IMG/VR virus record: IMGVR_UViG_3300010157_000061
Span: 1-64,000 of that record
Length of the DNA: 64,000 bases
Strand: one strand, 5' to 3'
Origin: a virus
Shown here: positions 36,639-41,101 of the stretch, piece after piece
Numbering within the stretch: position 1 is the first letter of the stretch
Layout: every line of letters starts with the position of its first letter
Made by a program: the position numbers and the translations under genes
The notes under the pieces: model-generated
Seen by the model: the letters and a program-made list of their open reading frames with translations, nothing else
Database searches by the model: none
Told to the model about the DNA's origin: nothing

Positions 36639-37010
36639 ATGAAAAAACTACTATTAGTACTAACGCTGTTATGTTCACTAACTACATTACAAGCTCAAGA
36701 CACAATCAAAATACCTACTCCTATAGCTAAATCAATCATTCACGATTTGATAAGCGGAGATAGTGCTAAAGTAGAACTAAAACTAACCAAAGAAGTATTA
36801 GATTCTACCGAAAAGAAAGTCGTAATCAAGGATTCATTAATCGCTAAATGGCAGAATAAGTACATGGTTTGCGATAATAACCTTAGGAACGAGAAGACGA
36901 AATTTGAATTACAGAGTCAATACGTTACTCAATTAGAACGTGGTAAAACTAAACTAAAGGTAGTAGCAGGTTTTTTTATCTTTACAACAATCTTCGCTTT
37001 ATTAAAATAA
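36639..37010 (+). CDS. Secreted coiled-coil protein, possible lysis partner
   Basis: 123 residues. Residues 1-20 are a signal peptide (KKLLLVLTLLCSLTTLQAQD) with a Bacteroidetes-style AQD end; no lipobox Cys is present. A coiled-coil region follows (KVELKLTKEVLDSTEKKVVI) and the C-terminus is a membrane helix (KVVAGFFIFTTIFALLK), so this would be anchored at its end. It pairs with the preceding spanin-like gene. Its last 131 bases occur again at 37651-37781. Confidence 0.6.
   Translation: MKKLLLVLTLLCSLTTLQAQDTIKIPTPIAKSIIHDLISGDSAKVELKLTKEVLDSTEKKVVIKDSLIAKWQNKYMVCDNNLRNEKTKFELQSQYVTQLERGKTKLKVVAGFFIFTTIFALLK
36880..37010 (+). repeat. 131-base direct repeat, copy 1 (3' end of gene)
   Basis: It starts accttaggaacgagaag and runs to the stop codon of the secreted protein gene. 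Copy 2 at 37651-37781 differs at seven positions, all transitions. Confidence 0.9.
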
Positions 37011-37014
37011 CAGA

Positions 37015-37023
37015 TATTTATTA
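37015..37023 (+). promoter_or_regulatory. TATTTATTA late-promoter-like motif
   Basis: It lies 15 bases before the ATG at 37039. Confidence 0.4.
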
Positions 37024-37038
37024 ATATAAACTTTAAAA

Positions 37039-37650: not shown

Positions 37651-37781
37651 ACCTTAGGAACGAGAAGACGAAATTTGAATTACAGAGCCAATACGTTACT
37701 CAATTAGAACGTGGTAGAACTAAACTAAAGGTAGTAGTAGGTTTTTTTATCTTTACAACAATCTTTGCTTTACTAAAGTAG
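37651..37781 (+). pseudogene. Duplicated 3' fragment of the secreted-protein gene (repeat copy 2)
   Basis: This 131-base block matches 36880-37010 except at seven transitions. In the original frame it still reads 42 codons to a stop with two amino-acid changes (Lys to Arg, Ala to Val). It has no start codon, and a TGA lies in frame just upstream, so it is a gene remnant. Five of the seven changes are silent. Confidence 0.8.
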
Positions 37782-37786
37782 GTTAA

Positions 37787-37795
37787 TATTTATTA
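37787..37795 (+). promoter_or_regulatory. TATTTATTA motif two bases before ATG
   Basis: The motif is separated from the start at 37798 by TT only. Confidence 0.4.
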
Positions 37796-37797
37796 TT

Positions 37798-38325
37798 ATG
37801 AACGAACTAAAAAGAATGCAGCAATTAGCTGGAATACTGAAAGAGAGTACTGGACTAGGAAGCAGTATGAGCTGGCTTAAAAGACTAACTCCGGAAATAG
37901 AAAAAAGCATAGACCGCTTAAAACAAAATTACCCTGACTATACAATTAAAATCACTGATAACAGTACTTGGAGAAGAGATAGACCGGACCTTAAAGGAAC
38001 TTATACATTATCTGTAGACGGACCTGTAATAACACCCGAGTTAAAGGTTGATATAGGTAGAATAGTTGATATGTCCAGGCTACAAGAAGGATTCCAAGGA
38101 GATAATGATGATCAAGATGATGGAATGAGTGGATTTAGAGGAGGAGCATTAGATAGATCAACTCCTAATGAACCTTCAATAGATAAGTCTAAACTAGGAT
38201 GGCAATCCTATCGTCTACTAGATAGATATATTACAAAGATGACTCAAGAACAGAGATTTAGACTGTATCAAACTATAGCTCAATTTCTTACTAAACAGGG
38301 TATAAAGAATCCAGATGAAGACTAA
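37798..38325 (+). CDS. LAGI-type protein 2
   Basis: 175 residues. MNELKRMQQLAGILKESTG carries the same RMQQLAGI string as the end of gp22, followed by an LKE step. An alpha/beta part follows (PEIEKSIDRLKQNYPDYTIK, GTYTLSVDGPVITPELKVDI), then an acidic Gly/Asp linker and a helical end (YRLLDRYITKMTQEQRFRLY). Beyond the leader it does not clearly match the other LAGI proteins. A strong terminator follows. Confidence 0.55.
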   Translation: MNELKRMQQLAGILKESTGLGSSMSWLKRLTPEIEKSIDRLKQNYPDYTIKITDNSTWRRDRPDLKGTYTLSVDGPVITPELKVDIGRIVDMSRLQEGFQGDNDDQDDGMSGFRGGALDRSTPNEPSIDKSKLGWQSYRLLDRYITKMTQEQRFRLYQTIAQFLTKQGIKNPDED

Positions 38326-38417: not shown

Positions 38418-38448
38418 TATAAATATACGGTTTGATGTCCTTTTGATA

Positions 38449-38456
38449 TATTTATA
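38449..38456 (+). promoter_or_regulatory. TATTTATA late-promoter-like motif
   Basis: It sits 12 bases before the GIY-YIG start and just after a strong terminator, so the endonuclease and terL probably begin a new transcript here. Confidence 0.45.
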
Positions 38457-38468
38457 TAAAATAGACTA

Positions 38469-39059
38469 ATGCCACAACAGGTAAGTAATGTAACTTATAT
38501 ATATGTAGTAACAGGTATAGAAGGAAATTCCAATAAAGTGTACGTAGGTAAGACGAAAAATACTTCTCGAGAAAGGGATCATAAAAACAAGTACGGTAAT
38601 GGTATTGAATTTGCGTTTATAGACTATGTGGAGTCTTTAGAAAGAAAGTATTGGCAACCGTTAGAAACATACTGGATTGAGCAATTCAATGCATGGGGAT
38701 TTAACGTTGTTAATGTAAAGAAAAAAGGTGGGAGCGGTGTCGAATACCACACAGAAGATACTAAACAGAAGATACGAGCGAAAAATCTAGTAAGTAGTAG
38801 GAGAGGTATAGATCATCATAATTTTGGTAAACCTAACCCTGCTCTAAGTAGGTTGAATAAGTTAAAAGTAGGTAGAAACCACCCAATGTACGGTAAGATT
38901 AATTTGGGAGCGAGCAAGAGTAGTAGTGCTAGAGTAGGTAGTAATAATCCGAACTATAGTAAAGTTTGGATAACTGATGGAATTGTAAGTAAAATGATAA
39001 ATCAAGACTCAGAAGTCCCGTCAGGATTTCACTTAGGCAGAACGTACATAAGAAAATAA
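38469..39059 (+). CDS. GIY-YIG homing-type endonuclease
   Basis: 196 residues. The catalytic module has YIYVVTG and KVYVGKT as the GIY and YIG strands, an Arg in TSRERDHKN, and the late Glu in LETYWIEQF. Three NUMOD3-like DNA-binding repeats follow (HHNFGKPNP, NHPMYGK, NNPNYSK). The end (KVWITDGIVSKMINQDSEV) is a typical WxTDG-type C-terminal unit. Such enzymes cut a specific allele so that their own gene is copied in. It stands 8 bases upstream of the terminase gene that carries the split intein, a likely homing target. Confidence 0.8.
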   Translation: MPQQVSNVTYIYVVTGIEGNSNKVYVGKTKNTSRERDHKNKYGNGIEFAFIDYVESLERKYWQPLETYWIEQFNAWGFNVVNVKKKGGSGVEYHTEDTKQKIRAKNLVSSRRGIDHHNFGKPNPALSRLNKLKVGRNHPMYGKINLGASKSSSARVGSNNPNYSKVWITDGIVSKMINQDSEVPSGFHLGRTYIRK

Positions 39060-39067
39060 AAACTATA

Positions 39068-39919
39068 ATGAATGAACAAGTAAATTATAAAGCAATAATA
39101 AAACAAGAATTTGTCAAGTGTGCCACAGACCCAGTGTATTTTATGAAACGCTATTATTGGATACAGCACCCTCAACGTGGACGTATTCAATTTAACTTAT
39201 ATCAATTCCAAGAACAGGTCCTACATCTATTACAGAATGATGAGTATATCATAATCAACAAATCAAGACAGTTAGGTATCTCAACCCTAGTATCTGCGTA
39301 TGCATTATGGTTGATGATATTCCAGAAGGATAAGAATATACTAGTTATTGCAACCAAGCAGGAGACGGCCAAGAACATGGTAACCAAGATAAGGTTTGCC
39401 TACGATCAATTACCGGCCTGGTTGAAAGTAAAATCAGTAGAAGATAATAGATTAAGTCTTAGACTAGCAAATGGTTCACAGGTAAAAGCAGTAGCAGCAT
39501 CACCGGATGCAGGTCGTTCGGAAGCAGTATCACTACTGATCTTAGATGAGGCTGCATTCATCGATAACATAGATACAATCTTTACCGCCGCTCAACAAAC
39601 CCTAGCCACTGGAGGACAATGCTTTGCAGTATCAACTCCCAACGGTACATCGAATTGGTTCCATAAAACCTATTCAAGGGCACAGATTAAGGAAAATAAA
39701 TTTACACCCCTTTCTTTACCTTGGACAGTACACCCGGAAAGAGATCAGACCTGGAGAAACGAACAAGATAAGACCTTAGGAGTTAGAGAAGCAGCTCAAG
39801 AGTGTGATTGTATATGGGGAGACAGCAGTGTAACAGTTCAATGCAAAGAGACAGGAGAGGTGAAAATCCTTTCGTTAGAACAGTTATATGCAGAAATGCA
39901 AGAATGTGATTATTTATAA
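39068..39919 (+). CDS. 17: Terminase large subunit, N-terminal part plus N-intein
   Basis: 283 residues. Residues 1-247 are the packaging ATPase: NKSRQLGIST (Walker A, 66-73), LLILDEAAF (Walker B, from 156) and the coupling segment FAVSTPNGTSNWF. Residues 248-283 are intein, beginning CIWGDSSVTV (block A with Cys1) and ending CDYL before TAA. The match to T4 gp17 resumes only in the next gene. The product should be inactive alone and must join its partner by trans-splicing, giving TerL of 247 + 281 = 528 residues. The next gene lies in the same frame after nine bases. Confidence 0.85.
   Translation: MNEQVNYKAIIKQEFVKCATDPVYFMKRYYWIQHPQRGRIQFNLYQFQEQVLHLLQNDEYIIINKSRQLGISTLVSAYALWLMIFQKDKNILVIATKQETAKNMVTKIRFAYDQLPAWLKVKSVEDNRLSLRLANGSQVKAVAASPDAGRSEAVSLLILDEAAFIDNIDTIFTAAQQTLATGGQCFAVSTPNGTSNWFHKTYSRAQIKENKFTPLSLPWTVHPERDQTWRNEQDKTLGVREAAQECDCIWGDSSVTVQCKETGEVKILSLEQLYAEMQECDYL
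39809..39916 (+). other. N-terminal half of split intein (36 codons)
   Basis: It begins at Cys1 after extein ...AAQECD. The block A pattern CIWGDSSV and the strand EVKILSLEQLYAEM are present; block B is absent from this half. An N-half this short is atypical, since most natural split inteins divide after block B. Confidence 0.85.
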
Positions 39920-39928
39920 GACTTAAGT

Positions 39929-40255
39929 ATGATACAGTTTAAATCAAACAATAAATATAGAGTACAAACACCTAGCGGATTTAAAGATTTCTCAGGAATG
40001 AGAAAGACTACAAAATCTAAGGTAGTAGAGATTACGTTATCTAACGGTAAATACTTGGAAGTATCAGAAGAACACAGGTTTTTAGGTATTGAAAACGTTG
40101 AAATACTAGCTAAAGATTTAATTGAAGGGATATGCCTAACAAAAAAGCTTAGTGTTACAAAGGTTAGTATTGTTGAAAAAGAAACATTTCTATATGATCT
40201 AACAGATGTAGGAGATGACAGCTACTATCTTACAGACGATATAGTATCACATAAT
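39929..40255 (+). other. C-terminal half of split intein (109 codons)
   Basis: It starts MIQFKSNNKYRVQTPSGF, contains a block-B-like EVSEEHRFLG, and ends with YYLTDDIVSHN before Cys+1 of the extein (CDFMTSG). Terminal His-Asn and Cys+1 are the expected splice residues. No homing endonuclease domain fits in the 145 residues total. Confidence 0.85.
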
Positions 40256-41101
40256 TGTGACTTTATGACCTCAGGTGCTACCGTCTTAGAACCGGAATTA
40301 TTAAATTGGTACGATGCTACTTGTGCTCAGGATCCTATGCAGAGAACGGGTATAGACAGTAATATATGGTTGTGGGAGATGCCAGACTATAGTAGAACTT
40401 ATGCAGTAGTAGCCGACGTAGCCAGAGGTGATGGTCGAGATTATTCATCGTTTCACATACTGGATATTGAATCAGCCAAGCAGGTCGGAGAATATAAAGG
40501 ACAGCTAGATACCAGAGATTTCGGTAATATGTTAGTAGGTGTTGCCACTCAATACAATGATGCATTACTGGTAATAGAGAACACAGGTATTGGATGGGAT
40601 GTCGTACAGACGGCAGTACATAGAGAGTATAGAAACCTATACTACTCTCCTAAATCCGATGCAGCTATGACTGATATCGAAGTCTACATCTCTAAATTTG
40701 ATAAAGGAGATGGTATGGTACCAGGCTTCTCAACCACGCAACGTTCAAGACCTTTAGTGATAGCTAAGATGAAATCATATATGCAAGAGAAATCTTGTAC
40801 CATACAATCTAAAAGACTCTTAGAAGAATTAAGAACCTTTGTATGGAAGCATGGCAAAGCACAAGCCCAGGAAGGTTATAATGATGACCTAGTAATGGCA
40901 TGGGCGATCGGTCTATTCCTGAGAGATACTACATTAAGATTCCAACAAGTAGGCCAAGACCTATCCAGAGCTACTCTTGGAGGTATGACAAAATCAAACT
41001 ACGGGTACCAAATCTACCAACCCACAACCTCAACCGGACAAAATCCTTGGGAGATGCCGAATCCTTACGGCCAGCAAGAAGATATTAGATGGGTCCTGTA
41101 A
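39929..41101 (+). CDS. 17: Terminase large subunit, C-intein plus nuclease part
   Basis: 390 residues. Residues 1-109 are the C-terminal half of the intein. From residue 110 (CDFMTSGATVLEPELL) the terminase continues with its RNase H-like nuclease: VVADVARGDGRDYS with the first Asp pair, LLVIENTGIGWDVV with the Glu, and GYNDDLVMAWAI with the last Asp. These cut the concatemer and end packaging. An ATG start at 39929 is supported by the match of MIQF to the start of the AceL-TerL C-half as I recall it. The frame is shared with the upstream gene. Confidence 0.85.
   Translation: MIQFKSNNKYRVQTPSGFKDFSGMRKTTKSKVVEITLSNGKYLEVSEEHRFLGIENVEILAKDLIEGICLTKKLSVTKVSIVEKETFLYDLTDVGDDSYYLTDDIVSHNCDFMTSGATVLEPELLNWYDATCAQDPMQRTGIDSNIWLWEMPDYSRTYAVVADVARGDGRDYSSFHILDIESAKQVGEYKGQLDTRDFGNMLVGVATQYNDALLVIENTGIGWDVVQTAVHREYRNLYYSPKSDAAMTDIEVYISKFDKGDGMVPGFSTTQRSRPLVIAKMKSYMQEKSCTIQSKRLLEELRTFVWKHGKAQAQEGYNDDLVMAWAIGLFLRDTTLRFQQVGQDLSRATLGGMTKSNYGYQIYQPTTSTGQNPWEMPNPYGQQEDIRWVL

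What the first reader, a model, noticed from the sequence alone, without database searches (positions are those of the whole stretch)
39917..39928. Both intein halves share one reading frame, separated only by TAA plus three codons
The halves lie in the same frame: TAA, then GAC TTA AGT, then ATG. The split could have arisen by one nonsense change with re-start at ATG, so this may be a young or minimal split. Read-through would yield a continuous 149-residue intein, so cis- and trans-splicing could coexist.
Basis: seen in the sequence. Interest (0 to 1): 0.7.

Follow-up and report, generated by a model that had tools for sequence, protein, structure and literature searches.

The report
Split intein with deleted-nuclease scar
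A phage DNA-packaging gene (terL) is cut into two neighbouring genes by a self-splicing intein, and the 9 bases between the halves are the leftover tail of a mobile nuclease gene that once sat there, so the split is old and was tidied up rather than freshly made by one stop mutation.

Summary
TerL-N plus a 36-aa N-intein ends in TAA at 39917-39919. GAC TTA AGT follows, then ATG (39929) opens a 109-aa C-intein plus TerL-C in the same frame. Two other assemblies of the same virus share the junction. It is an atypically split TerL intein of the AceL/GOS-TerL kind, with motifs intact and a predicted HINT fold.

The 'young nonsense split' reading is wrong in direction. The nearest HEN-bearing relatives split at the same place, with N-halves also ending ...DYL-stop, but carry a ~245-aa homing endonuclease (HEN) gene between the halves. 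That gene ends ...CKFIRIKYD, overlapping the C-half's ATG. The window keeps exactly this tail out of frame (FIRLKYDTV*, 39913-39942). FIRLKYD is the best of 127,960 six-frame 7-mers for HEN tails (22.9 bits; next 13.7). So the junction is the scar of a deleted HEN, probably lost between ATTTATA(A) repeats.

A contiguous relative does exist, with Leu TTA opposite the TAA and identical junction length. It nests among split, HEN-bearing inteins, so it is more likely a re-fusion than an ancestor.

Read-through is unsupported: TAA is this phage's ordinary stop and 9-nt gene gaps are normal. Trans-splicing is inferred, not shown.

The parts
39068..39808 (+). N-extein: TerL ATPase half
   Evidence: Pfam Terminase_6N E=4e-12; PHROG terminase large subunit E=3e-49
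39809..39916 (+). N-intein, 36 aa, Cys1 (CIWGDS...MQECDYL)
   Evidence: aligned with IntN of L010, L020, L023, L104 ending in the same ..DYL/HYL-stop; HINT fold of the joined model
39917..39919 (+). TAA stop of the N half
   Evidence: same stop position in L010 (TAG), L020, L023, L104
39912..39919 (+). ATTTATAA, presumed single remaining copy of the direct repeat that flanked the deleted HEN
   Evidence: L023 has ATTTATAA at both ends of its HEN; L010 ATTTATA; L104 TTTATAA
39913..39942 (+). HEN scar: HEN-frame FIRLKYDTV-stop, overlapping the N stop, the spacer and the C-intein start
   Evidence: 15/18 nt identity upstream of the ATG to HEN tails, unique among 1839 ATGs; peptide score 22.9 bits, best of 127,960
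39920..39928 (+). 9-nt spacer GACTTAAGT
39929..40255 (+). C-intein, 109 aa (MIQFK...VSHN), block-B His and terminal HN present
   Evidence: invariant columns; PDB 6dsl CatC E=2e-13; Pfam Intein_splicing 23 bits, below cutoff
40256..41101 (+). C-extein: TerL nuclease half, starts with Cys+1 (CDFMTSG); stop at 41099-41101
   Evidence: PHROG terminase; PDB 3c6a, 3cpe gp17
38469..39059 (+). Free-standing GIY-YIG/NUMOD3 endonuclease-like ORF between the terL leader and the terL start; possible trans-acting homing partner (inference)
   Evidence: NUMOD3 above cutoff, PHROG_314 homing endonuclease E=3e-9; no homologue in any held locus of another virus, and intein-less sister L158 has the same leader directly in front of terL

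Best explanation
This is a natural atypically split TerL intein (36 + 109 residues). The two halves are translated as neighbouring genes and should join TerL-N to TerL-C by protein trans-splicing. The in-frame TAA-GAC-TTA-AGT junction is the scar left when a homing endonuclease gene, which formerly lay between the halves, was deleted, probably by recombination between short ATTTATA(A) repeats. The intein reached this phage's terL horizontally, after its lineage diverged from intein-less sisters. Shown: anatomy, intact motifs, HEN tail in the spacer, HEN between the halves in relatives, tree nesting, incongruence with the TerL tree. Inferred: the deletion mechanism, trans-splicing, and translation of the C half from its own ATG.
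For: Relatives L010, L020, L023 and others have a HEN-like ORF at exactly this junction, and in L010, L020, L023 and L104 the N halves end at the same ..YL-stop. HEN tails CKFIRIK/CKFIRIRYD overlap the C-half ATG. The tail is native to the HEN: it ends HENs found only by HEN homology (L107-L109) and forms the last strand of the HEN's predicted C-terminal domain. The window reads FIRLKYDTV-stop in that frame. Intein tree: window in a 13-member clade (100/97), the other 12 being 11 HEN-bearing splits and contiguous L011; HENs of that clade also group (98/97). 77 of 79 nearest TerL relatives with the site lack the intein; the other two are the window's own virus. TerL tree puts the window with intein-less L004/L007. 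L044 kept a scar of a different HEN (ILNECWKNV-stop), L080 a HEN-free 8-nt gap. HINT fold, pLDDT 90, split in the least confident stretch.
Against: The scar is short (7 core residues, 18 nt upstream of the ATG). No allele with a partial HEN was found. L010/L020 HENs branch slightly differently from their inteins, inside weakly supported nodes. The window's intein branch is long (0.5). The HEN's nuclease family is supported only by a weak NUMOD3 match and non-significant Vsr/AbaSI fold hits. No expression or splicing data.
Confidence: 0.87

Rival explanations
1. Young split: a contiguous intein like L011 acquired a nonsense change (TTA to TAA) and C-half translation restarted at the ATG three codons on.
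For: Same frame; contiguous L011-L013 align without a gap and have TTA opposite TAA.
Against: Does not explain the HEN tail in the spacer, nor the shared N stop and C ATG in HEN-bearing relatives. The window and L011 nest inside HEN-bearing splits; a tree with all EDxHD-type split inteins as one clade and the contiguous ones outside is rejected (AU p=4e-6).
Confidence: 0.05
2. Pre-HEN ancestor: the window shows the original HEN-free split, and the HEN later entered such a junction in the relatives.
For: Both ends share ATTTATA repeats, as a target duplication would.
Against: FIRIKY is part of the HEN itself, present in HENs found only by HEN homology, so finding it in the window implies the HEN was there. 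The window is nested, not basal.
Confidence: 0.05
3. Read-through of the TAA gives some contiguous 149-aa intein, so cis- and trans-splicing coexist.
For: Same frame; the joined form is predicted to fold and a contiguous relative exists.
Against: TAA is the ordinary stop (45 of 51 ORFs). No suppressor tRNA in the window (only 64 of 67.7 kb read). A 9-nt gap is an ordinary gene junction here. Nothing special around the stop is conserved beyond the HEN tail.
Confidence: 0.06
4. Polarity rival for the contiguous relative: L011-L013 keep the ancestral contiguous form, and HEN plus split entered related inteins several times.
For: L011 outside the 12 splits of its clade is not rejected (p=0.15), and outside 7 only borderline (p=0.053). 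Other contiguous forms exist (L095, L127).
Against: Needs repeated insertion of the same HEN family at the same overlap. Does not change the HEN-scar reading of the window.
Confidence: 0.3
5. Assembly or sequencing artefact.
For: Metagenomic contig.
Against: Same junction in two further assemblies.
Confidence: 0.01

Closest known systems
GOS-TerL, AceL-TerL and Cat-TerL atypically split inteins
   Same: Intein in TerL with a short N half: GOS-TerL 37/115, AceL 25/104, Cat 30/104 (PMC11766414), here 36/109. Cys1/Cys+1 as in AceL. CatC (6dsl) is the closest solved sequence (E=2e-13; fold rmsd 2.0 A, 40% identity).
   Different: Extended IntN tail QECDYL; Bacteroidota-type T4-like phage; HEN scar at the junction. 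The gene layout of the named inteins could not be checked (original papers not held).
Fractured genes (Dassa et al. 2009, doi 10.1093/nar/gkp095; cited through PMC11766414 and PMC10448857)
   Same: Relatives show two intein-bearing gene halves with a HEN gene between them.
   Different: In the window the HEN is gone; only its last codons remain.
HEN-free mini-inteins of the homing cycle (PMC8966425)
   Same: Loss of the HEN after invasion while splicing is kept.
   Different: There HEN loss is described for contiguous inteins; here loss leaves the intein split.
TerL split inteins of cultured T4-like phages (JK32, kaaroe, HY03, phiR1-RT, SEA1, Thanatos-2)
   Same: Same host gene, short N half, endonuclease-like ORF between the halves or fused to the N half.
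   Different: 31-37% identity in IntC; at least phiR1-RT and HY03 are split at another terL position (N half after YIDEC).

Membership tests
Intein (HINT domain) | N-terminal Cys/Ser with block A | tested here: met
   Cys1, CIWGDS at 39809
Intein (HINT domain) | Block B His, C-terminal His-Asn and Cys/Ser/Thr+1 | tested here: met
   H49 and S107-H108-N109 invariant in IntC; Cys+1 at 40256
Intein (HINT domain) | HINT fold | tested here: met
   AlphaFold pLDDT 90; the top-ranked PDB matches are inteins
Intein (HINT domain) | Actual protein splicing | not testable with these tools
   Needs an expression assay
Atypically split TerL intein (AceL/GOS-TerL type) | Interrupts TerL, N half about 25-40 aa | tested here: met
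   36 aa in TerL; lengths from PMC11766414
Atypically split TerL intein (AceL/GOS-TerL type) | Sequence kinship to the AceL/GOS consensus | tested here: met
   6dsl CatC E=2e-13
Fractured gene | Free-standing HEN gene between the two intein halves | tested here: not met
   9 nt only; scar FIRLKYDTV-stop. Met in 11 clade-mates
Contiguous mini-intein | Single reading frame without a stop | tested here: not met
   TAA at 39917; met by L011-L013, L095, L127

The most novel reading that the evidence does not exclude
Splitting of inteins is reversible. This family shows three states in a series: split with HEN (L010, L020), HEN deleted leaving an in-frame split (window), and stop converted to sense giving a re-fused contiguous intein with the same junction length (L011-L013). 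The window would be the intermediate of 'un-splitting'.
Probability: 0.5. Interest if true: 0.65.

Novelty: new variant of a known kind. Interest (0 to 1): 0.5.

Why it matters
Accounts of split inteins run one way: a HEN invades a contiguous intein and breaks it (stated so in PMC11766414). Here the HEN's own tail codons mark a HEN deletion from a split intein. Clade-mates show the state before it, and possibly the state after it (a re-fused intein). That makes the reversibility of gene fracture testable by sequencing more alleles. It also yields a natural pair, split and contiguous with equal junction length, for comparing cis- and trans-splicing of one intein family.

Tried and rejected
Group I intron or other structured RNA: no Rfam match in the window. 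Recoded stop or suppressor: no tRNA in the window, TAA is the main stop. Assembly error: excluded by two other assemblies. Shine-Dalgarno before the C-half ATG: absent, but only 4 of 61 genes in the window have an SD-like site, so this says nothing. HEN scar in the contiguous L011: 9/18 nt, not distinguishable. [quoted passage not shown]

Full report
Observation. The layout is as described. TerL-N and a 36-residue N-intein end with TAA at 39917-39919; GAC TTA AGT follows; ATG at 39929 starts a 109-residue C-intein and TerL-C, all in one frame. Pfam and PHROGs identify both halves as T4-type terminase large subunit, next to a T4-type portal gene. Intein motifs are intact: Cys1 (CIWGDS), block-B His, VSHN and Cys+1. 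The read-through form folds as a HINT domain with pLDDT 90, the split lying in the least confident ten-residue stretch between two strands. Foldseek's top-ranked matches are inteins, including the Cat consensus atypical split intein. Two other assemblies carry the same junction.

Relatives. Scans of IMG/VR and cultured phages gave 84 distinct related loci with both sides of the junction: 66 have a HEN-sized gap, 7 have the N half in an ORF overlapping the C start, 4 have at most 60 nt between the halves, 3 have 60-300 nt, and 4 are contiguous (L011/L012, L095, L127). The nearest HEN-bearing inteins, L010 and L020 (IntC 62-64% identical), have an N half ending MQECDYL-stop exactly as the window, then a ~245-aa HEN-like ORF, then a C half starting MIQFK as in the window.

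The scar. In the HEN-bearing loci closest to the window the HEN ends CKFIRIKYD..., and its last codons overlap the C-intein ATG: TTT ATA AGA ATT AAA TAT GAT contains ATG AT. The window reads TTT ATA AGA CTT AAG TAT GAT ACA GTT TAA at 39913-39942, that is FIRLKYDTV-stop. The 18 nt before the ATG match HEN tails at 15/18, unique among 1839 ATGs of the window. FIRLKYD scores 22.9 bits against HEN tails, the best of 127,960 six-frame 7-mers (next 13.7). The tail belongs to the HEN: HENs L107-L109, found by HEN homology only, end CKFIRIKYNEI, CKFIRLTN.. and CKFIRIKNN, and FIRIKY is the last strand of the HEN's predicted C-terminal domain. So the window once had the HEN. L023 has ATTTATAA on both sides of its HEN, L010 ATTTATA, and the window one ATTTATAA at 39912; deletion between these repeats gives the window's junction. 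HEN loss recurs: L044 keeps ILNECWKNV-stop, the tail of the GIY-YIG HENs of its own group, and L080 has only 8 nt.

Phylogeny. The window's intein sits in a 13-member clade (100/97) with 11 HEN-bearing splits and contiguous L011; the HENs of that clade also group together (98/97). A tree with all EDxHD-type splits as one clade and the contiguous inteins outside is rejected (AU p=4e-6), but L011 alone as sister to the 12 splits is not (p=0.15). Re-fusion of L011 is therefore likely, not proven. The TerL tree puts the window with intein-less L004/L007 (86% identity), and 77 of 79 nearest TerL relatives with the site lack the intein, so the intein came in horizontally.

Mechanism. Both halves are probably translated as ordinary neighbours: gaps of -14 to +15 nt are common in this genome and SD motifs are rare. 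TerL is essential for packaging (established knowledge of tailed phages), so trans-splicing, or at least assembly of the two chains, must occur. Splicing is inferred from the intact motifs and from related inteins shown to splice (AceL-TerL, GOS-TerL; PMC11766414). Read-through is not excluded but nothing supports it.

Against the known. It works like, and is related to, the atypically split TerL inteins. It fails the defining feature of a fractured gene (HEN between the halves) because that HEN is gone. I call the interrupting ORF EDxHD/Vsr-like from memory of Dassa et al. and from the conserved acidic/His residues; the tools give only weak NUMOD3 and non-significant Vsr/AbaSI support.

Noticed in passing
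window 38440-39067: The GIY-YIG/NUMOD3 ORF 38469-39059 sits between the terL leader (TTTGATATATTTATATAAAA..AT) and the terL start. The intein-less sister L158 has the same leader directly before terL, and no held locus from another virus has the ORF. It may be a second HEN that moved the HEN-less intein in trans.
   Followed up: partly
window 39797-39809 and 39899-39911: The end of the N-intein repeats the intein insertion site: CAAGAGTGTGATT and CAAGAATGTGATT (12/13). L079, L146 and L130 show a similar echo next to the HEN (12-13 of 14), as if the HEN came in with a copy of its target.
   Followed up: partly
L155:3460-3520: Another HEN-less TerL intein whose halves are in the same frame with only TAA between them (..QDN-TAA-ATG PPP..), even more minimal than the window.
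   Followed up: no
L121:2440-2560 (Vibrio phage EniLVp02): N- and C-intein ORFs overlap out of frame with no HEN.
   Followed up: no
L141:2660-3505 and L116:772-2523 (phage JK32): The N half is fused in frame to the HEN-like ORF, giving a TerL-N/IntN/HEN polyprotein ending over the C-half start.
   Followed up: no
window 36880-37031 and 37651-37803: Two ~150-bp stretches 91.5% identical to each other, seen in the blastn of L001/L002.
   Followed up: no
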